A DNA stretch of 64,000 nucleotides, from contig NZ_JAUFQR010000001.1 of assembly GCF_030409875.1 (NCBI RefSeq), positions 4,030,001 through 4,094,000 on the forward strand, written 5' to 3'. The notes beneath the pieces were generated by a model. That model had not been told where the DNA came from and searched no databases. It saw nothing but the letters and a program-made list of their open reading frames with translations. Of the stretch, positions 23,650 through 58,484 are shown in pieces. A program made the translations under genes and the position numbers. The stretch comes from Chryseobacterium tructae. GTDB lineage: Bacteria; Bacteroidota; Bacteroidia; Flavobacteriales; Weeksellaceae. The stretch's first letter is position 1. Each line of letters starts with the position of its first letter.

Positions 23650-26495
23650 ATGTCACGAGAAAGTCTTTTTCTAACAAAAGCCGCATTTTTTCTTTTGGGC
23701 CCATTGGCCTTTGCACAAACCTCAGTTCATGGAACCGTAGTAGACAACCAAGGAAACCTTCCTAATGCACTGGTATATATTGAAAACAGTGGACAAAAGG
23801 TTACTTCCAATACAGATGGATCCTTTGTTCTGAATACTGTTTATGATGGCAATTATAAACTTGTCGTAGAATACAAAGGGTATGATACCATCTACATTCC
23901 TTTCAACGTAATAGACAAAAAGGAAGTTGACTTTGGGTTGGTTAAATTTGGAACTAAACTTAAAGAAAACAGTATTCAGGAAGTGGTTGTTACCAGTGTA
24001 TACAAAGCTTCACAAGCAAGAGCCATCACCATGAAAAAGAATTCCAATACCATCACAGAGGTACTTTCTGCTGATGCCATTGGAAAACTTCCGGATCGTA
24101 ATGCAGCCGATGCGGTACAGCGTATGCAAGGAGTATCCATTGAGCGTGATATGGGAGAAGGACGCTTTGTTGCAGTAAGAGGAACACCTATACAATGGAC
24201 AGCTTCTACTTTAAATGGCAACAGAATGCCCAGCGCGAGCGGTGACAATGCGAATCGTGGTGTGCAAATGGATATCTTTCCTTCGGAACTTATTCAGAAC
24301 GTCCGCTTATCCAAAGCATTGACTCCGGATTTGGATGGAGATGCTATTGGCGGGAATGTAGATTTTATTACCAAAACATCTCCCAATAAAGAAACCTTAG
24401 CCATAAGCATGTCTTCCGGATACGTCAATATGTCTAAATCACCAACCTACAATTCTTCTATTGTTTACGGAAACAAGATTACCAATAAACTAAAATTCAT
24501 CTCTTCTGCGGTAATATGGGAACGTTCTACGGCTATTGATCAGATGAGAAATATTTTCAATTATGGATTGAAAGACAAAACAGCCTCCTACTCTATCAAT
24601 CAACTGCAGCTTCGCGATTATCTGGCTAACCGAAGAACACTTGGATTCAATTTAGGGCTGGATTATGAGATAAACAGCAGGAATAAACTATACTTTAAAG
24701 GCTTATACAGCCAATATAAGGACGGACAATCTGTAAGGGAAACCTATTTTAATTTTGATAATAAAAATGTAACCCTTCAGGCTCGTCATGCAGATTATCT
24801 TACAGATCTTTATTCTATGCAACTGGGTGGAAATCATCAGGTAGGACAGCGTTTGGAGGTGAATTGGTCATTATCTAAAGCCCGTTCAGAGTTTAGATTC
24901 AATTCTCCGGAAAACCTTGACAAAAATGAAAGAGGATATCCAATGGTTAATTTTGTACAGCCTATGACCTATGGCAATCTTTCTGCTGATGGAAGAAAAT
25001 ACATGGCTATGGATGCTCCTGATGGCATTGGAGATACCGGACGTTATACTCTGCCTTCTCATCAACAGGCAATAGCAGCCGATCAATTAAAATTAAATCA
25101 AATTATTCTCAGCCAAAATCACAATAGCGAAACAGACTTAAGAGGACAGGTAGATTTAAAATATAAAGTATCTGATACCTTTGAGCTTAAATTTGGGACA
25201 AAATATAACAATAAAAACAAAAACGTAGACAGTTCTTTACTGGTATGGATGCCTAAATCTTCTCTTGGAATTCCCGGAAATCCAGTCACCTATCTGAATC
25301 AGCTTAATCGTGAAGCATTTCCATACAGAGGAGGTTTTATGAATCCTCTTGGGAATCCTTACAATTCGGCGATCATTGATCAGATTACCAACGGACAGAT
25401 TGATCAGATGTACAACCCAGCTACACAGAATCGGCTAGGTCTCATGCAGGTAAGCAGCAAAGACAGCAGTTCTAATATCACCAGTTCTTATCGTGGAACG
25501 GAAAATGTATGGGCAGCTTACGTGATGGGAACCTGGAAAGTGACTGATCAGCTTCAGGTATTGGGAGGTTTCAGAAATGAATATAATGATATTACATTTT
25601 GGGGCAAGAAAGTGGTTTCGGACAAGGATAATAAAACAGAAGATATTAAAGATACCAAAACCTACAACATTCTGCTTCCTATGGTGAACTTGAAATGGAA
25701 TATCAGCAATGACCGCATTCTAAGGCTTGCCTACACCCGCTCTTTTGCAAGGCCAGACTTCAATGATCTGAACCCGGGAACCATTGTAAATGATATCACC
25801 AATACCATCACTCAGGGGAATACGAAACTGGATCCTACATTTCCAACAACTTTGATCTTATGTTTGAAAATTACTTTGGAAAACTGGATCTGATTACAGC
25901 GGGAGTATTTTACAAAGACATTACCAACCTCATTTATAAAGATCAGTCAGTAGCAGATATCGGCGGCAGAACTTATACCTTCACTGCTCCTAAAAATCTG
26001 GAAGGAGCAAAATTATTCGGTTTTGAATTGGGGGTCTCCAAACGTTTTGAAAATCTCCCTGGATTTTTGAAGAATTTAGGGTTTGAAGGAAATTACACTT
26101 ACATCTCCTCTAAAATGAATATGCCCATCTATGAAAATGGCCAGCAGACAGGAACGATGTCCACTACTATTCCTAATCAGGCCAAACATATTTTCAATAC
26201 CATCCTGTTTTATGAAACCAATAAACTGATGCTTCGGGTAGCCGGGAACTATAAAGGAAATTATGTAAGCGAGATCAGAGCTGCTGCAGGCGCAGATCAC
26301 TATCAATATTTCGATAAAAACTTCACTGTGGATCTTTCTACCTCTTACAGCATTTCAAAGAAGGTTCGAGTGTTTTTAGAACTTAATAATATTTTCAATG
26401 AACCTAACCGCTATTATATGGGAACAAAAGACCGTGTAGAGAATATTTCCTACTCAGGAATGCGCGGGCAGCTAGGATTCACTTATAACTTCTAA
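23650..26495 (+). CDS. TonB-dependent receptor (frameshifted)
   Basis: After a signal peptide (ending LAFAQ) come a carboxypeptidase-regulatory-like domain (about 25-100), a plug domain (IGKLPDRNAADAVQRMQGV, then RGTPIQWTASTLNG) and a long beta-barrel ending in LGFTYNF. The plug resembles the TonB-Xanth-Caul receptor subfamily. The break is in the T run at 25840-25842: CCTACATTTCCAAC where one more T gives P-T-F-S-N-N-F-D. Restored length is 948 residues. It imports a ligand across the outer membrane with TonB energy. Its operon partner is a secreted PI-PLC, suggesting uptake of a lipid headgroup or phosphate compound (inference). Confidence 0.88.
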
Positions 26496-28050: not shown

Positions 28051-28051
28051 G

Positions 28052-28125
28052 CGATCCGGACGGGACTCGAACCCGCGACCTCCGCCGTGACAGGGCGGCA
28101 TTCTAACCAGCTGAACTACCGGATC
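28052..28125 (-). tRNA. tRNA-Asp (GTC), copy 6 in transcription order
   Basis: 74 bases with a 7-base acceptor stem GATCCGG/CCGGATC, discriminator G, D arm TTCAGCTGGTTAGAA, anticodon stem CCGCC/GGCGG with loop CTGTCAC (anticodon GTC), and T arm with GGTTCGAGTCC. CCA is not encoded. One of six identical copies. Confidence 0.97.
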
Positions 28126-28158
28126 AATTTTTTTAAAAAGAAATTGAGAAAACTTCTG

Positions 28159-28232
28159 CGATCCGGACGGGACTCGAACCCGCGACCTCCGCCGTGACAG
28201 GGCGGCATTCTAACCAGCTGAACTACCGGATC
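28159..28232 (-). tRNA. tRNA-Asp (GTC), copy 5
   Basis: Identical to the copy at 28052, 107 bases further on, with an A/T-rich 33-base spacer. Confidence 0.97.
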
Positions 28233-28265
28233 AATTTTTTTAAAAAGAAATTGAGAAAACTTCTG

Positions 28266-28339
28266 CGATCCGGACGGGACTCGAACCCGCGACCTCCGCC
28301 GTGACAGGGCGGCATTCTAACCAGCTGAACTACCGGATC
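28266..28339 (-). tRNA. tRNA-Asp (GTC), copy 4
   Basis: Identical sequence; repeat period 107 bases. Confidence 0.97.
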
Positions 28340-28375
28340 AATTTTTTTAAAAAAAGAAATTGAGAAAAACTTCTG

Positions 28376-28449
28376 CGATCCGGACGGGACTCGAACCCGC
28401 GACCTCCGCCGTGACAGGGCGGCATTCTAACCAGCTGAACTACCGGATC
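28376..28449 (-). tRNA. tRNA-Asp (GTC), copy 3
   Basis: Identical sequence; the spacer before it is three bases longer (period 110). Confidence 0.97.
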
Positions 28450-28485
28450 AATTTTTTTAAAAAAAGAAATTGAGAAAAACTTCTG

Positions 28486-28559
28486 CGATCCGGACGGGAC
28501 TCGAACCCGCGACCTCCGCCGTGACAGGGCGGCATTCTAACCAGCTGAACTACCGGATC
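28486..28559 (-). tRNA. tRNA-Asp (GTC), copy 2
   Basis: Identical sequence; period 110 bases. Confidence 0.97.
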
Positions 28560-28592
28560 AATTTTTTTTAAAAGCAATTGAAAAACTTTTTG

Positions 28593-28666
28593 CGATCCGG
28601 ACGGGACTCGAACCCGCGACCTCCGCCGTGACAGGGCGGCATTCTAACCAGCTGAACTACCGGATC
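28593..28666 (-). tRNA. tRNA-Asp (GTC), copy 1 (promoter-proximal)
   Basis: Identical sequence; the spacer to copy 2 differs slightly from the others. It is preceded by the only promoter of the array. Confidence 0.97.
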
Positions 28667-29202: not shown

Positions 29203-30377
29203 CTATCTATGCTCAACATTAGTTTTTTCTATAGCATAGTCTTTTGAAATCTCTTTTAAAGCATTCACCAATGCGTCTATATCCGCTTTTGTCGTTAAGT
29301 GACTGAAAGAGATACGCAATGGTGTACAATGATCCATTTCATCTTCAGAAAGAACCATCATCATCACCATAGAAGGTTTAGATGCACCAGAAGAGCATGC
29401 ACTTCCCTGAGAAATTGCAATTCCTTTCATATCCAACTGAAGACCAATTAATGGGTTTTTATAAGGCAATAAAGCACTTAATACCGTATAAAGACTATTT
29501 TCCTTTTCAGCACTTCTTCCATTGAATTTTATCCCCTCAATTTCAGCAGATAGCCTTTCGATAGCATAGTCTTTAATATCTTGCATATAGTTGGTATATT
29601 CCTCTATATTATTCAAAGCAAGCTCCAATGCTTTTCCTAGTCCTACAATACCACAAACATTCTCAGTTCCTGCTCTAAGGCTTCTTTCCTGAGGTCCTCC
29701 TGTAATGATTCCTTTCAATCCTGTTGCCTTTCTGATGAAAGCAAAGCCGGAGCCTTTAGGTCCATGAAATTTATGGGCACTGCAAGAAGCAAAATCTACC
29801 GGGATATCAGATAAATCAAGCTGCATATGAGCCATCGTTTGCACCGTATCTGAATGGAAAGAGCATTATGCTCTTTACAAAGCACAGCTACCTTTTTAAG
29901 ACCAATAAGATTTCCTATTTCGTTGTTGGCATGCATTAAGCTTACCAATGTTTTTTTATCTGAAGATTTTAATAACTCCTCTAATTTATTAAGATCAATA
30001 TCTCCTTTTTCATTAGGGCGGATATAATTTACTTCTACTCCTTTTCTCGCTTTCATATCCAGAATACTTTCAGAAACACATTTATGTTCCAAAGGTGAAC
30101 TGATGATTCTTTCTACTCCAAGATGCTCTACCGAGGATTTGATAATCATATTATTGGATTCTGTTCCACAAGAAGTGAAAATGATTTCAGCAGGAGTTAC
30201 ATGAAGATAGTCTGCAACCTGTCTTCTTACATTTTCAATAAGGATTTTGGCTTCCTGCCCAAAGCTATGAGTTGAAGACGGGTTTCCGAAGTTCATCTTC
30301 ATCGTACCAACCATTGCATCTATAACTTCTTCTGCAAGCGGAGTGGTTGCGGCATTATCTAAATATATTTTATCCAT
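29203..30377 (-). CDS. Cysteine desulfurase, IscS/NifS type (frameshifted)
   Basis: A PLP enzyme that takes sulfur from cysteine for iron-sulfur clusters and tRNA thiolation. The first frame has LDNAATTPL and LMHANNEIGN; the second has CSAHKFHGPKGSGF (PLP lysine) and GSACSSG (active cysteine). The break is in the A run at 29858-29860: one more T on the coding strand gives N-A-L-F-H-S-D-T-V-Q. Restored length is 391 residues. The start at 30377 (MDKIYLDNAATTP) is preferred over an upstream ATG that lies inside the preceding gene. It begins two bases after the PrcB-like gene ends. Confidence 0.9.
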
Positions 30378-30379
30378 TG

Positions 30380-30856
30380 TTATTTTGAATATTTTAATTC
30401 TACGGAGGTAAACTGGTAATCTGTGGGAACAGTAAAAATAAACCAAGGGTTGGAAAGAACCTGAATTTCCATGCCTCCAGGAGTAGACTCTCTACCCGGC
30501 ACTTCTACATATAAAATATTGTTCTTTACAGACACCCCTTTAATTTCATTAATAGTGTGGCTGCCTGATCTGAAGCTTCCCAGATTGTATAAAACAACCT
30601 TTTTATCTTTTGGAAACTTTGGATAGTTAGTTGCAGGAGCTTTCCCTTCTTCTACAAGTTCAAAATCACTTTTTCCCAGAGCAACATATTCTTTTTCATC
30701 TTTTATGATCCTAAAGCCAGGCTGCTCAGTTCCTCCCTGAGAATTAGACACCAGAAGTTCTGCTTTTTGCTGCATCTCAGACGTTTTTTGTGAGGATGAT
30801 GTTGTACTTGCGCAGCTCATCAGGATAGCTGTACATGCAATTAACAAACTTTTCAT
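30380..30856 (-). CDS. PrcB-like C-terminal domain lipoprotein
   Basis: 158 residues with a lipobox (LMSCAST). Residues about 90-155 contain VVLYNLGSFRSGSHTINEI and VEVPGRESTPGGMEIQVLSNPWFIFTVP, the pattern of the PrcB_C domain first seen in a spirochaete protease complex. A role in the envelope is likely; a protease partner is not evident nearby. It sits between the HAD phosphatase and cysteine desulfurase genes in one direction with short gaps. Confidence 0.78.
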   Translation of the reverse strand: MKSLLIACTAILMSCASTTSSSQKTSEMQQKAELLVSNSQGGTEQPGFRIIKDEKEYVALGKSDFELVEEGKAPATNYPKFPKDKKVVLYNLGSFRSGSHTINEIKGVSVKNNILYVEVPGRESTPGGMEIQVLSNPWFIFTVPTDYQFTSVELKYSK

Positions 30857-30880: not shown

Positions 30881-31468
30881 TTAGTGAAAAAATTGGTAAT
30901 GTCCCTCATTTGCCCATTTCAACATTGGCTTATCTCCGGATGTATCACCAAATGCAATAATTTTATCATACCTAGAATCGTGGATTTCTTCCTTTATTCT
31001 CACCAGTTTTTCTTTCCCGTTGCAATTTTTTCCGATGAAGTTTCCTGTGAAAATACCGTTCTTGAACTCGGCTTTGGTAGAAACGAGTTGCATTTTCAAT
31101 ACCTCGGCAAAAGGTTTTACCCAGATATCTAAAGAGGCTGTTACTAATAAACTTTGTGTATTATTCCTATCGATATTTTGAATAAAATCCAGGGCATTTT
31201 CCCTTACAATTTTAGGATAATGCAATTCAAAAAACTGTTTGGATTTCAATTCTATTTTTTCCTGAGTCTGTCCTTTTAAAATGGATCCGATAAAACTTTT
31301 CTTTACTTTTTCCGTTTCTGCCAGCTTCAGCTTCAGCAAAATAAAAAGCGGTACATGTCTTAAAAATTGTATTCTATATTTTGTAGAGTCGTAGAATTTA
31401 AGATACATAAACATAGTATCTTTATACGTTAGGGTTCCGTCAAAATCAAAACAATACAATTTTTTCAT
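30881..31468 (-). CDS. HAD-IB family phosphatase in a DprE1/DprE2 operon
   Basis: 195 residues with the haloacid dehalogenase motifs: nucleophile DFDGTLT (residues 8-14), VTAS motif II, GKEK with the motif III lysine, and FGDTSGDKPML motif IV. The helical cap is of the SerB-like (IB) type. It follows the DprE2 gene by three bases and is the last gene of the operon. In the mycobacterial pathway a phosphatase must remove the 5'-phosphate from polyprenyl-phosphoryl-phosphoribose; this enzyme is a good candidate for that step (inference). Confidence 0.85.
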   Translation of the reverse strand: MKKLYCFDFDGTLTYKDTMFMYLKFYDSTKYRIQFLRHVPLFILLKLKLAETEKVKKSFIGSILKGQTQEKIELKSKQFFELHYPKIVRENALDFIQNIDRNNTQSLLVTASLDIWVKPFAEVLKMQLVSTKAEFKNGIFTGNFIGKNCNGKEKLVRIKEEIHDSRYDKIIAFGDTSGDKPMLKWANEGHYQFFH

Positions 31469-31471
31469 TTT

Positions 31472-32196
31472 TTAAAGCTTTAACTTTTTAAATATAAACT
31501 CAGGGATATTCCTGATAATCATCATAATAATATTCCAAATCGGCAAAACATATGCCACGTTCTTTTGTTTTTTGAACGCTTTATAAATACAAGCTGCTGC
31601 CTGTTTAGGAGTAGCCGTTAATTTTGGATTTAAAGGCAGACCTTCTGTCATTTTAGTTGCCATAAATCCAGGTTTTACCGTCAATACATGTACTTTTTTA
31701 CTGAAAAGGTAATTTCTAAGTCCACTCAGGTAAGCTGTAAAAGCAGCTTTTGCACTTCCATAAATAAAATTACTCTGTCTTCCACGATCTCCTGCTACTG
31801 ATGAAAGTCCGATGATCGTTCCAGACCTTCTGTTTTCAAATTTATGAGCAAAATAGTTCATTACCGGAATCAGTTTAGAATAATTGATATTAATAATACG
31901 TTCTGTATTCTTGTTATCATACAATCCTTCCTCCGTCCCTTCACCCAAATATCCTACGGCACAAATAATACATTTGAATTGATATAATCAAATCTGTTGT
32001 AATCTATTTCTTTCATCAGATCTAATTCTATTACTTCAGACTGTTGTAGAAATTTCACATCAATATGTTTTGCAAATCTTTCTGTCGTTTCTTTATTTGA
32101 GGTAAAAAGATAGATTTTTTCAAACTTTTCTCCTTCCTGAAGTGCTTTTTCCACAAAAGCCTGTGCTACTTCAGATGTACTTCCCAGGACTATCAT
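31472..32196 (-). CDS. DprE2-like short-chain dehydrogenase (frameshifted)
   Basis: A short-chain dehydrogenase of 241 residues once repaired. The N-terminal frame has the Rossmann motif VLGSTSEVAQAF; the second has SSVAGDRGRQSNFIYGSAK with the catalytic Tyr-x3-Lys and ends with MMIIRNIPEFIFKKLKL. These segments match mycobacterial DprE2, which reduces the 2'-keto intermediate made by DprE1 to give polyprenyl-phosphoryl-arabinose. The break is near 31980: one more base gives D-Y-I-Q-F-K-C-I-I-C-A-V-G-Y-L-G. The start overlaps the DprE1 stop by one base. Confidence 0.85.
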
Positions 32197-33515
32197 TATG
32201 AATTGTTGTTTAAGATTCTTTTGTGCTGTAAAGACACAAATTTAGGACTTCGAATGTTTTTCAGGTAATTGGTTAATGAAGATCTGCTCATACTATCTTT
32301 AGTCAAATAAATCCTTCCTCCAAACTCCTGAACAATACTATCAAGCTGATCCACCAGCTTTTTCAGTTTTGAATTTACTTTAAAATCCAATGCCAATGTA
32401 TACCCTTCCACAGGGAAAGAATTGTAAGCTTCCGGATTGTTTTTTCCAAAAAGTTTTAAAACTGCCAAGAACGAACCATTACCACTTTTGGCAATCGTTT
32501 CAAGAATTCTTTTCATTCCTTCTTTTCCTGCTTCTTTTGGAATCACCATTTGGTATTGTATAAAACCAGATTTTCCATAGATTTTATTCCACTCATTTAT
32601 GGCATCTAAAGGATAGAAAAACGTTTCGTAATCGATAAAGCTTTTTACTTCTTTCTTAGATTGTTTTTTATAATAGAGCCAGTTGAAAATCTTTACTGTC
32701 AAAGCATTTAATACGAATCCCGGAAAGTAGAACGGAATAGTAGGCTGTAATTTACCCTTTAATCGTAAAGGTGATTTGGCCATATTCTGAGGCAATTCGT
32801 GCTGGAAAGCATGCTCTCCTCTCATCAGAATACTCCTTCCTATATTATTTCCTTTCTGAAGACAATCGATCCAGGCTACGGTATACGTCCAGCTTTCACT
32901 TTCGTCAAACAGTTTAAAGATTTCATCAAGATTCTCTGCTTTGATACTTTCCTGACGGATATAAGCAGATTCTATATTTTTAAGTTTAAATTTTGCAGTC
33001 AGAATGATTCCTGTAAGTCCCATACCACCAATAGTAGCCCAGAACTTTTCTGCATTTTCTTCTCTTGAACAGGTAATGATCTCTCCGTTTTCCACCATCA
33101 GCTTGAATTCCAATACATATTCTGAAAAACAGCCTTCTGCATGGTGGTTCTTCCCGTGTACATCTGAAGCAATAGCTCCACCTATGGAAACAAACTTTGT
33201 TCCCGGAGTTACGTACAGGAAATATCCTTGCGGAACTGATATTTCAAGCACATCCGAAAGCAATACTCCGGATTCGCATTCTATAATCCCGTTCAAACGG
33301 TCGAAACTGATGAATTTATTTAATTTCTTGGTGGAAAATATGGATTCCCCCAATGAAGCATCTCCATAACATCTTCCGTTTCCTCTTGCAATAACTTCAT
33401 TGTGATTGAGTACGAATTCTTTTATGTTTTTGAAGCTGTCTTCAGATCTCATTTCTTTTTCTACAACCGGGTAGTTACCCCAGTTTGTAACTTTCTGTGT
33501 GAAATTTGGCTTCAT
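32196..33515 (-). CDS. DprE1-like decaprenylphosphoryl-ribose oxidase
   Basis: 439 residues. An FAD-binding (PCMH/VAO-type) domain contains RGNGRCYGDAS and TPGTKFVSIGGAIASDVHGKNHH, both close to DprE1 of Mycobacterium tuberculosis. The C-terminal part has GRIYLTKDS with the catalytic lysine conserved. DprE1 oxidises the 2'-hydroxyl of polyprenyl-phosphoryl-ribose. The position of mycobacterial Cys387 (GWNICVDF) reads GYTLALDF, so the cysteine that benzothiazinones modify is an alanine. The gene overlaps UbiA by four bases and DprE2 by one. Confidence 0.9.
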   Translation of the reverse strand: MKPNFTQKVTNWGNYPVVEKEMRSEDSFKNIKEFVLNHNEVIARGNGRCYGDASLGESIFSTKKLNKFISFDRLNGIIECESGVLLSDVLEISVPQGYFLYVTPGTKFVSIGGAIASDVHGKNHHAEGCFSEYVLEFKLMVENGEIITCSREENAEKFWATIGGMGLTGIILTAKFKLKNIESAYIRQESIKAENLDEIFKLFDESESWTYTVAWIDCLQKGNNIGRSILMRGEHAFQHELPQNMAKSPLRLKGKLQPTIPFYFPGFVLNALTVKIFNWLYYKKQSKKEVKSFIDYETFFYPLDAINEWNKIYGKSGFIQYQMVIPKEAGKEGMKRILETIAKSGNGSFLAVLKLFGKNNPEAYNSFPVEGYTLALDFKVNSKLKKLVDQLDSIVQEFGGRIYLTKDSMSRSSLTNYLKNIRSPKFVSLQHKRILNNNS

Positions 33516-34399
33516 TTCTTAAAGTAAATTTGAATTAAAAATGTGGCCACCCAAAGTAATAAAGTAACCTGTATATAACGGTCTCTGTACACAATTTTTG
33601 TGGGAGATTCTGTTCTATTGTACACTAATGTCTGCTGAAGATATCTTAAAAGAGCAAATACAACGAAAACTACTGTATAAAATACTCTTTCATGGAATCT
33701 TGCCTGAACTTCCGGTGAAAGGGTAAACATCAGATAACAAACAATAGCCAGTGTAATAGAAATAGATAAAGCAATATCTGCAAATTGTACATTATACCCA
33801 TCCAAAGCTTTTCTTGTTTTTCCAGAAACCTGAGCATTGATAAGCTCTCCTCTCCTTTTTCCGATAGCGAGTACCAGTGCCAGTACAAAAGTCAGTAAGA
33901 TCGCCCATTGTGAGATACTAATTCCTGTAATGTAACCGCCTGCCAGAACACGAAGTACAAATCCTATAGCAATAATAAAAATGTCAATAATTGGGACATG
34001 TTTGAGTCTGAATGTGTATGCAAGGTTCATCACCACATAAAAAGCAATAATGGTAGCAAATTTCCATAGTGGCTGATGAAAATACATTTGAGCAAAGCCT
34101 ACAAAAGCAATATCTGCAATTACAAGCCCAATCAGAATTCCTATTGCTGTAGATTTTGAAATGGCACCACTTGCCAAAGGACGTTTTCTTTTTTCAGGAT
34201 GTTGCCTATCTGCGTCAATATCATTATAATCATTAAGAATATAAACAACACTTGCAGCAAAAGAGAAAATGATAAAAGCAAAGATACTTTTGGTAAGTAA
34301 ATCCAAATTGGTAATATTACCAGAGAAAAATAGGGGCACAAATACAAAAAGGTTTTTTACCCATTGCTCTACTCGAAGTAGTTTTAAATATTTCTTCAT
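33512..34399 (-). CDS. UbiA-family decaprenyl-phosphate phosphoribosyltransferase (DPPR synthase)
   Basis: 295 residues with about nine membrane helices. The first aspartate motif NDYNDIDADRQHPEKRKRP and the second, YTFRLKHVPIIDIF, match mycobacterial UbiA (Rv3806c), which moves phosphoribose from PRPP to a polyprenyl phosphate, rather than quinone-type UbiA enzymes. The N-terminal VEQWVKNLFVFVPL is also shared. It is the first gene of a four-gene operon with DprE1, DprE2 and HAD phosphatase homologues. Confidence 0.9.
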   Translation of the reverse strand: MKKYLKLLRVEQWVKNLFVFVPLFFSGNITNLDLLTKSIFAFIIFSFAASVVYILNDYNDIDADRQHPEKRKRPLASGAISKSTAIGILIGLVIADIAFVGFAQMYFHQPLWKFATIIAFYVVMNLAYTFRLKHVPIIDIFIIAIGFVLRVLAGGYITGISISQWAILLTFVLALVLAIGKRRGELINAQVSGKTRKALDGYNVQFADIALSISITLAIVCYLMFTLSPEVQARFHERVFYTVVFVVFALLRYLQQTLVYNRTESPTKIVYRDRYIQVTLLLWVATFLIQIYFKK

Positions 34400-41549: not shown

Positions 41550-42439
41550 TTATTTAATATGGGATAAAATATATTCCAGTTCTTCTTCATTTTTGAAGTC
41601 CAGGACAATTTTACCTTTTTTACCATTTCCAGAAGCTTTGATCTCCACTTTTACATCCAGGATGTCAGCAATGGTCTTCTGAGCTCTTTTATAGTTATTG
41701 GATAACTCGGCACTTACTTTTTTAGCAGCCGGAGATTTTGGATTTTTAAATGCAGCCGCAGCTTGTTCAGCCTGACGTACATTCAGCTTTTCTTTAATGA
41801 TCAGATCGAATAAAATCTGTTGGTTTTCTTCACTTTCAAGACTGATGATTGCTCTCCCATGTCCAGCAGAAATTTCACCGCTTCTGATAGCATTCTGAAT
41901 ATCCGGATTCAATCTTAACAATCTGATTGAATTGGTAATTGTACTTCTATCTTTCCCTATTCTCTGGCTAAGATTTCCTGAGTAAGACCTATTTCTTCTA
42001 AAAGCCTGTGATAAGTAAGAGCAATTTCAATAGCATCAAGATCTTCTCTCTGAATGTTTTCAACAAGAGCCATTTCAAGAAGCTCCTGATCATTTACTAA
42101 ACGGATGTACGCAGGAACTGTCGTTAAACCAGCAATTTTACTTGCTCTGTAACGTCTTTCCCCGGATATGATCTCAAATTTCTCACCGTCTTTTCTTAAG
42201 GTAATTGGTTGGATGATCCCTAAGTTTTTAATAGACTGTGCTAATTCCTCTAATGCTTTTTCATCAAAATAAGTTCTCGGCTGCGTCGGGTTCGGATATA
42301 TATCTTCAAGCGCAACTTCTACAATATTTCCCACGAACTTGTCTGCTCCCTCATCTGTAGCGGAGTTGACAGTTGCTTTGGATTCTGCACTTAAAATGGC
42401 GCCCAAGCCGCGTCCCATAGCTCTTTTTTTGTCCTTCAT
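41550..42439 (-). CDS. parB: Chromosome partitioning protein ParB (frameshifted)
   Basis: The N-terminal frame has RGLGAIL, the IYPNPTQPRTYFD and SGERRYRASKIAGL boxes of the CTPase domain, and ENIQREDLDAIE. The second frame has the end of the helix-turn-helix and IRSGEISAGHGRAIIS, plus the C-terminal dimerisation part. The break is near 41968-41973: one more base gives Q-E-I-L-S-Q-R-I-G-K-D-R-S-T-I-T. Repaired length is 296 residues, normal for ParB. With ParA it segregates replication origins. Confidence 0.93.
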
Positions 42440-42507: not shown

Positions 42508-43280
42508 TTAATTCTTTATTAAGTTTTCGTTCTTTAAAAGAACTTCTTCAGCTAACTGAATATACTGAACAGCCCCTTTACTTTCGGCATCATAGTTCAG
42601 GATACTTTCTCCGAAGCTCGGAGCTTCACTCAATCTTACATTTCTGCTGATGATGGTTTCAAAAACCATTTCCGGGAAGTGAAGATTTACTTCTTCTACT
42701 ACCTGATTAGATAGTCTTAATCTGCTATCATACATGGTAAGAAGAAGACCTTCTATTCCAAGATCTTTGTTATGGATCTTCTGAACGTTTTTAACGGTGT
42801 TCAAAAGCTTCCCAAGCCCTTCTAATGCAAAGTACTCACACTGAATCGGAATAATTACCGAGTCTGCTGCTGTAAGGGCATTTACTGTAATCAAACCTAA
42901 ACTCGGTGCACAGTCTATGATAATATAGTCATAATCATCCCTTACACTCGCTAATGCTTTTTTCAGCATATATTCACGATCTTCTTTGTCTACCAATTCG
43001 ATTTCCGCTGCTACCAAGTCAATATGTGATGGAATAATATCCAGATTCGGCGTTGCCGTTCTTTGATACAAACCCTTGTATCCGCACTATGCTCCAGTAG
43101 ATTATATGTGGAATACTGAACATCTTCTACTCCCAAACCAGATGTAGCATTGGCCTGAGGGTCAGCGTCAATGATCAATATTTTTTTTTCCAATACTCCT
43201 AATGCTGCTGCCAAGTTTACAGCGGTAGTAGTTTTTCCTACCCCACCTTTTTGATTAGCAATACCTATGATTTTTGCCAT
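42508..43280 (-). CDS. parA: Chromosome partitioning ATPase ParA (frameshifted)
   Basis: A deviant Walker A motif KGGVGKTTT and [15 protein letters not shown] lie in the first frame; [17 protein letters not shown] and the C-terminal half lie in the second. The break is in the three-A run at 43070-43072 (coding GGGTTTGTATC): one more T gives [12 protein letters not shown]. Repaired length is 257 residues, the standard size. The start at 43280 ([10 protein letters not shown]) is preferred over one seven codons upstream. parB follows. Confidence 0.95.
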
Positions 43281-43390
43281 TATTAGAACTTTAAGTTTCA
43301 AAAATACACTTTTTTCTTTGCTCCCGATAGATGGAGAAAATCAAAATTGAGTTAAAATATTGTTAATAAGCAATTTAACGATAAAAAAAA

Positions 43391-57329: not shown

Positions 57330-58484
57330 TTAATTTCTATCCAATTCTTTTCGTTTGGTATAACAATATCCTATAATACAAAAAGGTAAACAGGCTGCCA
57401 GATAGGTAGTAGAAAAGAAATTACTCTGAAAATCAAAACCCAAGATCAAATATTTCTCGGTAACAAAACTTACCATGACTAAAAATGTAATATAAGCTGA
57501 AAAAGAAAATACAGTTTCTATTCTTTTAGCATAAAATGATGCCAGAATAGCCAACACAATAAAGAATAACATCACATATTTATTGCTTTGTCCCTGAAGA
57601 GTTAAAGGGTTATACTGTAACAAATGATCCATATTTTTGGCTGGTAGAAAAACAGTGGCTAATAATATGGCTACAGTGAGCAGATAACTTATTCCAAATT
57701 TAATTTTCTTTTCCCAACCAGTGTTCATAAAAGGTCTTAACAGGAAAATAATCAACGGAATAATGGCTACACTTCTGGTAAGACACAGAATACCGATGCC
57801 TATTCCAAGCAAAATCGGCTTTTGAAAATAATTATGTTTAAATTGACTATGCCAAAAGAGCATAAAGGCTGCTACGGCAATAAAAGAAGCAATAAAATCA
57901 CTTTTACAGACTACATCGTAAATGTACGCTAAAGATACGCCTAGCATCAATATGCCAATAAACCTGATAAAATTATTTTTAAATTCAAGACAGATCGTGT
58001 ATGAAAACAATAAAAATGCGGCTACCTGAAGGTATCCTACATTTCCTATAAAATAGAATATACTGGCCAGAAGCAACTGCCCCGGAAGATAGGAAGACAG
58101 ATTCCCCATAAAATTCGGGGTATCATAAATATATTTTCCTTTGGTCCAATATTCTAAAGAAAACTCTAAAGTCTGCCATCGGTCTATATTCATTTTGTAA
58201 GGATCTTTCATCACATGACATAATGCAATATAAGCCACAGCTATTCCTCCAATCAGGATATATACCAACTTTCCCGATATTATTTTCTTAAGCCTTTCCC
58301 ATTTTCCCGCTAAAAACAAAAATAAATTAGCTACAGAAAAAACAACAACTAAGATGCTGAGAGGAACAAAAGATTGCCTAATGCCATATTTTGTCAGGAA
58401 TAAAAGATTAACAACAAAATAAACAGCAAACAGAAGAATACTGTTAAGCTGGTTACCTTTTACAAACTTTTGAATTCCGTTCAT
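57330..58484 (-). CDS. Polytopic membrane protein, possible GT-C glycosyltransferase
   Basis: 384 residues with about ten to twelve hydrophobic helices across the whole length and an extracytoplasmic-type loop after the third (KDPYKMNIDRWQTLEFSLEY, LEYWTKGKYIYDTPN). That layout, with acidic and Tyr/Trp residues in the first large loop, is like polyprenyl-dependent GT-C glycosyltransferases, but no family motif is certain. It shares its first bases with the TatD gene's end. Confidence 0.6.
   Translation of the reverse strand: MNGIQKFVKGNQLNSILLFAVYFVVNLLFLTKYGIRQSFVPLSILVVVFSVANLFLFLAGKWERLKKIISGKLVYILIGGIAVAYIALCHVMKDPYKMNIDRWQTLEFSLEYWTKGKYIYDTPNFMGNLSSYLPGQLLLASIFYFIGNVGYLQVAAFLLFSYTICLEFKNNFIRFIGILMLGVSLAYIYDVVCKSDFIASFIAVAAFMLFWHSQFKHNYFQKPILLGIGIGILCLTRSVAIIPLIIFLLRPFMNTGWEKKIKFGISYLLTVAILLATVFLPAKNMDHLLQYNPLTLQGQSNKYVMLFFIVLAILASFYAKRIETVFSFSAYITFLVMVSFVTEKYLILGFDFQSNFFSTTYLAACLPFCIIGYCYTKRKELDRN

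What the first reader, a model, noticed from the sequence alone, without database searches (positions are those of the whole stretch)
30881..34399. A mycobacterial-style polyprenyl-phosphoryl-arabinose operon in a Bacteroidota genome
Four overlapping or nearly touching genes (UbiA-type DPPR synthase, DprE1, DprE2, HAD phosphatase) encode every expected step from PRPP and polyprenyl phosphate to polyprenyl-phosphoryl-arabinose. The overlaps are 4 and 1 bases and the last gap 3 bases. In actinobacteria this donor feeds arabinan in the wall. Bacteroidota are not known for such arabinan, so the end use (a D-arabinofuranose on a glycan, glycolipid or glycoprotein) would be new.
Basis: partly seen in the sequence, partly recalled or inferred. 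Interest (0 to 1): 0.82.

Follow-up and report, generated by a model that had tools for sequence, protein, structure and literature searches.

The report
Arabinose-donor operon in Chryseobacterium relatives
A four-gene operon in a Chryseobacterium-like bacterium very probably makes the same lipid-linked arabinose that tuberculosis bacteria use for their wall, and in its family it keeps company with one of two membrane sugar-transferases, so which surface molecule receives this sugar can now be tested.

Summary
The operon is real and its reading as a polyprenyl-phosphoryl-D-arabinofuranose pathway holds by homology: UbiA passes two of three NCBIfam phosphoribosyltransferase cut-offs and keeps the catalytic motif; oxidase and reductase have DprE1 and DprE2 as best solved relatives, though below NCBIfam's cut-offs. 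Correction: DprE2 is split by a frameshift here; 23 of 23 same-genus relatives have it intact and 4 of 27 comparable window genes are split, so an assembly error is likely. The HAD protein is the probable 5-phosphatase. DprE1 is common here: 93 of 120 family and 82 of 395 phylum genomes. New: the likely consumer. Two unrelated GT-C families (A, about 495 aa; B, about 450 aa) occur almost only with DprE1 (80 of 93 DprE1+ against 2 of 27 DprE1- genomes, both incomplete), stand in for each other, and can lie directly beside this operon (A: Empedobacter, Vaginella and others). In Chryseobacterium A lies behind a TMEM260-like gene; in Empedobacter inside a Wzy-type polysaccharide cluster. 13 DprE1+ genomes have neither. 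The acceptor is open. Chemistry known, users new; nothing was measured.

The parts
33512..34399 (-). UbiA-family polyprenyl-phosphate 5-phosphoribosyltransferase (DPPR synthase type), 295 aa; NDxxDxxxD at residue 56, GKRxxEL at residue 180
   Evidence: (NF008977 235.3 bits against cut-off 234; NF008978 219 against 207; NF008976 172.3 against 474)
32196..33515 (-). DprE1-like FAD oxidase (polyprenyl-phosphoryl-ribose 2-oxidase), 439 aa; HGKNHH at residue 120, YLTKDS at 403; Ala where the solved DprE1 has the Cys that covalent inhibitors bind (that role recalled)
   Evidence: (NF053785 403.5 bits, below the 500 cut-off)
31472..32196 (-). DprE2-like SDR reductase, split by a frameshift into 31954-32196 and 31472-31948
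   Evidence: intact relative:
30881..31468 (-). HAD-IB phosphatase, 195 aa, DxDGT at residue 8; probable 5-phosphatase of polyprenyl-phosphoryl-ribose-5-phosphate
   Evidence: (TIGR01490 111.1 bits against 98.3); HAD-UbiA fusions beside DprE1 in 5 of 5 long UbiA proteins tested

Best explanation
The operon makes polyprenyl-phosphoryl-beta-D-arabinofuranose. [quoted passage not shown] The lipid sugar is then turned to the periplasmic side by an unidentified flippase and used by a GT-C transferase (type A in this strain, at G000:C1:2523017-2524504; type B in others) that adds D-Araf, singly or in short chains, to a surface glycan. The acceptor is most likely an exported polysaccharide in Empedobacter and Epilithonimonas (inferred from the gene clusters); in Chryseobacterium it may be that or a protein O-glycan.
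For: Enzyme identities. Gene order kept. Module logic: G059 (g37) and G060 (g38) keep UbiA and HAD side by side between the usual neighbours with DprE1 and DprE2 missing, and UbiA is fused to a HAD domain in 5 of 5 long forms tested. Consumer: GT-C A directly follows HAD in 7 of the 80 kept loci (4 Empedobacter, Faecalibacter, Vaginella, Chishuiella). A or B occurs in 80 of 93 DprE1+ and 2 of 27 DprE1- family genomes (Fisher 3.4e-14, relatedness not corrected); A and B almost exclude each other among DprE1+ genomes (59 A only, 20 B only, 1 both, 13 neither). By genus: 23 of 24 DprE1+ and 2 of 9 DprE1- genera (p 6e-5, counts read off). In genus g36 the 9 listed DprE1+ genomes have A or B and the 2 listed DprE1- have neither. 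B stands where genus-mates have A, beside the operon on the other strand (G086, G145) and behind TMEM260 (G118). In the phylum sample 8 of 395 genomes have A and 3 of 395 have B; all 11 are DprE1+ (9 of them are of the family). Models of A and B have a GT-C fold.
Against: No product was measured. DprE1 and the intact relative's DprE2 score below NCBIfam's curated cut-offs. DprE2 is broken in this window. 13 of 93 DprE1+ family genomes have neither GT-C, so a third consumer must exist or the link is looser. Two DprE1- genomes, incomplete ones, have A (one also B), and UbiA was not found in them. The sequence link of GT-C A to AftB is weak (E 0.18 and 0.33; none with the own protein) and by fold AftB is not the best match; B has no Foldseek hit at 0.001. 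No flippase is linked: the one GtrA protein in the genome is on another contig. In this genome operon and GT-C are unlinked.
Confidence: 0.75

Rival explanations
1. The D-Araf goes onto a protein O-glycan: GT-C A acts together with the TMEM260-like protein, which would start the O-glycan (mannose on Ser/Thr), as a second periplasmic step.
For: In G118 the unrelated GT-C B takes the same slot.
Against: TMEM260 is in 25 of 25 family genomes tested, DprE1-negative ones included, and the slot is empty in several DprE1+ genera, so no dependence is shown. In Empedobacter (A) and Epilithonimonas (B) the GT-C lies in polysaccharide clusters. I read of no TMEM260-like protein shown to glycosylate proteins in Bacteroidota; PMC12871550 (section 8 and passages) calls the OTase undiscovered.
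Confidence: 0.3
2. The D-Araf is a side chain or residue of a Wzy-type capsule, exopolysaccharide or O antigen in all these bacteria, added in the periplasm as in the three-component pentofuranose systems.
For: The published model matches (PMC11127046, Discussion part 1 read).
Against: In Chryseobacterium the GT-C is mostly beside TMEM260, not in such a cluster, and the operon is among unrelated genes. No MATE-like gene was noticed beside it (judged by size and membrane spans; not searched by family).
Confidence: 0.45
3. The lipid-linked arabinose is an end product itself or decorates a glycolipid, and the GT-Cs found here are bystanders.
For: 13 of 93 DprE1+ genomes lack both GT-Cs; operon and GT-C are unlinked in most loci read (12 of 20 lie by TMEM260, 1 of 20 directly by the operon, 1 of 20 with UbiA and the start of DprE1 in the stretch).
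Against: The two-family replacement at two different places and the near absence of both GT-Cs without DprE1 are hard to explain by chance.
Confidence: 0.12
4. The frameshift in DprE2 is real, and this strain makes only the ribose form or nothing.
For: The split is in the sequence; two genomes of other genera lack DprE1 and DprE2 while keeping UbiA and HAD.
Against: 4 of 27 comparable window genes are split, two of them read as ParA and ParB; 23 of 23 relatives are intact.
Confidence: 0.1

Closest known systems
Mycobacterial DPA pathway (Rv3806c, DprE1, DprE2; donor for arabinogalactan and lipoarabinomannan)
   Same: Phosphoribosyltransferase with the NDxxDxxxD motif and the oxidase/reductase pair; solved members are the best PDB relatives in all three cases
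   Different: HAD phosphatase instead of Rv3807c (said to be unrelated to HAD in PMC11127046); one tight operon; one copy of GT-C A or B per carrying genome as a rule, only weakly AftB-like; inhibitor-site Cys is Ala in 20 of 20 family loci; no arabinan known
Three-component pentofuranose systems of Gram-negative bacteria (Citrobacter youngae ORF12/14/15, GT136; PMC11127046)
   Same: PPPRS with HAD phosphatase making a lipid-linked pentofuranose for a periplasmic GT-C; the paper reports DprE1/E2 homologues where the glycan has Araf
   Different: Separate UbiA and HAD genes, no linked MATE flippase noticed, GT-C away from the operon in most loci read; GT136 membership not tested
Pseudomonas paraeruginosa D-Araf type IV pilin glycosylation (TfpW; PMC12369383 passages; the original paper asked for is not held)
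   Same: Gram-negative, donor genes with a ubiA, GT-C transferase encoded away from the donor genes
   Different: Acceptor there is a pilin; the GT-Cs here are beside TMEM260, the operon or polysaccharide genes; relation to TfpW not tested
AftB arabinosyltransferase (PDB 9dlf, 9dlh)
   Same: Only PDB sequence hit at E 1 or better for G119's GT-C A (0.18) and for the alignment (0.33); second and third Foldseek match, 16-17% identity
   Different: Those E-values are not significant, and the own protein gives no such hit; OST, PMT, ALG12 and ArnT score higher in VIA-align

Membership tests
Polyprenyl-phosphate phosphoribosyltransferase (DPPRS/PPPRS) | Score over NCBIfam equivalog cut-off | tested here: met
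   NF008977 235.3 against 234, NF008978 219 against 207; a third model, NF008976, is not met (172.3 against 474)
Polyprenyl-phosphate phosphoribosyltransferase (DPPRS/PPPRS) | NDxxDxxxD in loop II and R/E of loop IV, conserved between ORF15, Rv3806c and the Pseudomonas enzyme (PMC11127046 section 7) | tested here: met
   Residues 56-64 and GKRxxEL at 180 in the window protein, aligned with 8j8j
[quoted passage not shown]
   Needs an enzyme assay
DprE1 (NCBIfam NF053785) | Score over the curated cut-off of 500 | tested here: not met
   403.5 bits; 0 of 395 genomes of the phylum pass, 1 of 14 controls does. I therefore call it DprE1-like
DprE1 | Best solved relative is DprE1 rather than alditol, lactone or cytokinin oxidases; HGKNHH and C-terminal Lys kept | tested here: met
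   3.9e-81 against 1e-9 for the best other chain; motifs by alignment. That these residues are catalytic is recalled
DprE2 (NCBIfam NF053786) | Score over the curated cut-off of 250 | tested here: not met
   Intact relative L007 142.7 bits; PRK07102 245.3 against 267; window's second piece 125.9. Hence DprE2-like
DprE2 | Closest solved SDR is DprE2 | tested here: met
   Intact relative L007: only PDB chain at 1e-12 or better, 21gq_C, 3.1e-23
HAD phosphoribose phosphatase (PRP) | HAD-IB family with the loop I aspartates | tested here: met
   TIGR01490 111.1 against 98.3, DxDGT
HAD phosphoribose phosphatase (PRP) | Removes the 5-phosphate of lipid-linked ribose-5-phosphate | not testable with these tools
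   Inferred from operon, UbiA-HAD pairs in G059/G060 and fusions
Three-component pentofuranose system | PPPRS, flippase and GT-C encoded together | tested here: not met
   In this genome the GT-C is at C1:2523017 and the operon at C1:4060881-4064399, no flippase noticed beside it. In Empedobacter PPPRS and GT-C are together, flippase not identified
GT136 | Sequence relation to Citrobacter ORF12 | not tested
   ORF12 sequence was not at hand
GT-C glycosyltransferases, type A | GT-C fold | tested here: met
GT-C glycosyltransferases, type B | GT-C fold | tested here: met
AftB (arabinosyltransferase) | Type A clearly closer to AftB than to other GT-C enzymes | tested here: inconclusive
Mycobacterial arabinan assembly | Emb and several Aft transferases in the genome | not tested
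   No search with Emb families was made; the twelve genome searches went elsewhere

The most novel reading that the evidence does not exclude
Chryseobacterium and its kin put D-arabinofuranose on their protein O-glycans: a TMEM260-like enzyme starts the glycan on secreted proteins and the neighbouring GT-C (A, or the unrelated B in its place) caps it from lipid-linked D-Araf. DprE1-less relatives with UbiA and HAD only would make a ribofuranose version.
Probability: 0.25. Interest if true: 0.75.

Novelty: new variant of a known kind. Interest (0 to 1): 0.55.

Why it matters
D-arabinofuranose is best known from mycobacterial walls, and its donor pathway is a drug target (recalled). Here it is a widely kept trait of one Bacteroidota family, with two candidate transferases that seem to stand in for each other. 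That turns 'what is it for' into a few gene deletions and one sugar analysis. It also bears on how selective DprE1 inhibitors are, since this DprE1 has Ala at the site of the reactive Cys (role recalled), and, in the bolder reading, on the missing enzymes of Bacteroidota protein O-glycosylation.

Tried and rejected
Rejected: quinone-type UbiA, alditol oxidase and generic SDR readings. Rejected as the general consumer: other membrane proteins near the operon in single genomes (EptA/sulfatase-family protein L079, Na/Ala symporter L069, weakly YfhO-like protein L075). Three homologous membrane proteins near the operon in other families (L087, L092, L094) had no Pfam hit, and L092 no PDB hit; not followed. 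The only GtrA-family protein of the genome was found, but nothing links it. Literature gave nothing for this family: DprE1 with arabinofuranose and Bacteroidetes 1 unrelated listing, DprE1 with Chryseobacterium 0, decaprenylphosphoryl with Flavobacteri 1 unrelated, Riemerella with UbiA and lipopolysaccharide 0; the broad searches gave the papers cited and otherwise nothing used. PMC10787497 (R. anatipestifer serovar GWAS) has none of my six terms in its main text. The library holds open-licence papers only.

Limits of the counts: the family sample is 120 genomes drawn evenly from a larger group, and I take to be the same sample because size, handles and genera agree; part of the non-matching genomes is not listed in each. 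Fisher values treat genomes as independent. In the phylum searches only a few first-look candidates per genome were scored, so weak relatives can be missed. examines 80 of 163 relatives. Gene calls in my scripts take the longest frame and can miss genes broken or cut at contig ends. Genus names for handles rest on equal contig lengths (G065 = Vaginella massiliensis; G046 = Epilithonimonas zeae and G044 = Halpernia frigidisoli) and are inferred. Names such as ParA, ParB, KdsA, CysK, thioredoxin and cysteine desulfurase are by eye, from no call.
Full report
OBSERVATION. On the minus strand the window holds UbiA 33512-34399, a DprE1-like oxidase 32196-33515, a DprE2-like reductase 31472-32196 and a HAD phosphatase 30881-31468, junctions -4, -1 and +3 bases. 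The reductase is not intact: two frames, 80 and 158 codons. In 23 of 23 same-genus relatives it is one gene of 241 codons; HAD was found inside the fetched 4.3 kb in 22 of the 24 loci, own included. Against relative G007, 4 of 27 well-covered genes are split in the window (60 frames of the relative were given, 27 were covered to 85% or more). I read this as an indel-prone assembly.

IDENTITIES. UbiA: two NCBIfam decaprenyl-phosphate phosphoribosyltransferase models passed, one failed; PDB gives at 0.001 only 8j8j and 8j8k, both of that name; the motifs NDxxDxxxD and GKRxxEL align with 8j8j. Two other UbiA proteins are in the genome and were not typed. DprE1: 403.5 bits for NF053785 where the cut-off is 500, yet all nine sequences at 1e-70 or better are DprE1 and the next kind is at 1e-9. 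No genome of 395 in the phylum passes that cut-off, and of 14 control genomes only Corynebacterium glutamicum does. The Cys that covalent inhibitors bind (recalled) is Ala in the window and in 20 of 20 family loci; HGKNHH is in 19 of these 20. DprE2: an intact relative scores 142.7 of 250 for NF053786, but its only PDB chain at 1e-12 or better is a solved DprE2. HAD: TIGR01490 over cut-off. UbiA proteins of 475-492 aa beside DprE1 in five other loci of the phylum all carry a HAD domain before UbiA (5 of 5), as the Citrobacter ORF15 does (PMC11127046 section 7), which supports the HAD as the 5-phosphatase.

DISTRIBUTION. DprE1 protein: 31 of 39 genomes had any hit at 0.001, but only the 24 of the own genus (own included) were full-length; the seven others were weak partial hits in other families of the order. 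In the family 93 of 120 genomes and 24 of 33 genera at 1e-40. In the phylum 82 of 395 genomes, 40 of 170 genera at 1e-40 to the family model; no f3 genome is among the 82. The window's genus is Chryseobacterium by the nearest named relatives of its GT-C, an inference.

THE MODULES. Of 11 DprE1-negative family genomes tested, two, G059 (g37) and G060 (g38), have UbiA at 1e-15; in both UbiA is followed directly by HAD between the same neighbours (OmpA-like lipoprotein before, cysteine desulfurase-like and thioredoxin-like genes after), with DprE1 and DprE2 missing. Neither is among the carriers of GT-C A or B. This fits a ribose module (UbiA+HAD) and an epimerase module (DprE1+DprE2), with the GT-Cs following the latter. 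It is two genomes.

THE CONSUMER. Reading 20 family and 20 other loci, I found a 502-aa GT-C-like protein directly after HAD in G119 and a broken relative of it before UbiA in G045. It has one relative in the window's genome, 50% identical, at L105:9018-10505, directly behind a gene that is split into three frames and whose first part is TMEM260-like (PF11028, E 6e-67). The own protein has no Pfam or NCBIfam family at 0.01; G119's has a sub-threshold DUF6044 hit (0.0019). Databases call relatives of both types 'hypothetical protein' or 'Glycosyltransferase RgtA/B/C/D-like', and a few of type A 'LTA synthase family protein'. PDB sequence search gives AftB at E 0.18 for G119's protein, nothing relevant for the own one, and 0.33 for the alignment: a hint, not a result. 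The model (of P0003, 95% identical; pLDDT 80, pTM 0.83) has the GT-C fold, with ALG12, AftB and PglB in front by Foldseek and OST, PMT, ALG12 and ArnT before AftB by VIA-align.

WHERE THE CONSUMER SITS. Of 80 named loci kept from 163 relatives, 64 have TMEM260 immediately upstream on the same strand, 7 have HAD immediately upstream (five-gene operon), 1 has the operon within 10 kb, 2 are at a contig edge, and 6 have something else immediately upstream; in one of these six, L139, TMEM260 is one gene further away. In Empedobacter stercoris L127 the five genes are followed by glycosyltransferases, an EpsG-type polymerase, a PF00953 initiating transferase, a Poly_export protein and a large AAA_31/GNVR protein. 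In G046 (Epilithonimonas) GT-C B lies beside an acyltransferase, EpsG, GT2 and PF00953 proteins; by sizes and membrane spans only, clusters of similar layout hold B in G114, G091, G131, G155, G103 and G062. In G044 (Halpernia) B is followed by DUF1697- and KdsA-like genes, the usual followers of the TMEM260 slot, with TMEM260 itself elsewhere. TMEM260 is in 25 of 25 tested genomes, so its neighbourhood is a hint only.

WHAT IS SHOWN AND WHAT IS INFERRED. Shown by sequence: the genes, their order, their nearest relatives, the co-occurrence and the replacements. Inferred: every catalytic step, the flipping, the role of A and B, the acceptor. As a rule one copy of A or B per carrying genome suggests single residues or short chains rather than a large arabinan, but other GT-Cs exist and a genome-wide Emb/Aft search was not made.

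NOVELTY. The chemistry is known, also outside actinobacteria (PMC11127046; PMC12369383, passages). What I did not find described, in the searches named under Tried and rejected, is this pathway in this family and its two GT-C partners. D-arabinan degraders in Bacteroidetes are described (PMC10115798, passages), makers not in what I read.

Noticed in passing
window 57330-58484, minus strand: A 384-aa multi-spanning protein that by eye looks like another GT-C-type transferase; no Pfam hit at 0.01. It could be a further consumer.
   Followed up: partly
L252:6883-8399 and L253:7678-9168: UbiA-HAD pairs without DprE1/DprE2 between the same neighbours in genera g38 and g37: possible ribofuranose version of the pathway.
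   Followed up: partly
L134:18619-20010, and a shorter relative by eye at L075:10161-10556: A membrane protein of 464 aa between DprE1 and DprE2 in a Flavobacteriaceae MAG, with a 132-aa fragment-like counterpart in G107; possibly another GT-C.
   Followed up: no
L087:11251-12906, L092:10166-11839, L094:13528-15159: A set of homologous 543-557-aa membrane proteins near the operon in other families of the phylum, without Pfam hit.
   Followed up: partly
window 28051-28666, minus strand: Six tRNA-Asp genes (GTC anticodon) in a tandem row, 107-110 bases apart.
   Followed up: no
window 29203-30446, 41550-42439, 42508-43301; also 23650-26495: Other genes split by frameshifts (by eye cysteine desulfurase, ParB, ParA) and a TonB-receptor-like gene in two overlapping frames (by eye).
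   Followed up: partly
P0236, P0230 (type B relatives): GT-C B has a relative in Riemerella anatipestifer, and one relative has a precomputed PF09913 domain.
   Followed up: no
L126:1492-1950, minus strand (own genome, contig C2): The only GtrA-family protein of the genome at 0.01, next to a gene that by eye is an acyltransferase; a possible flippase.
   Followed up: partly
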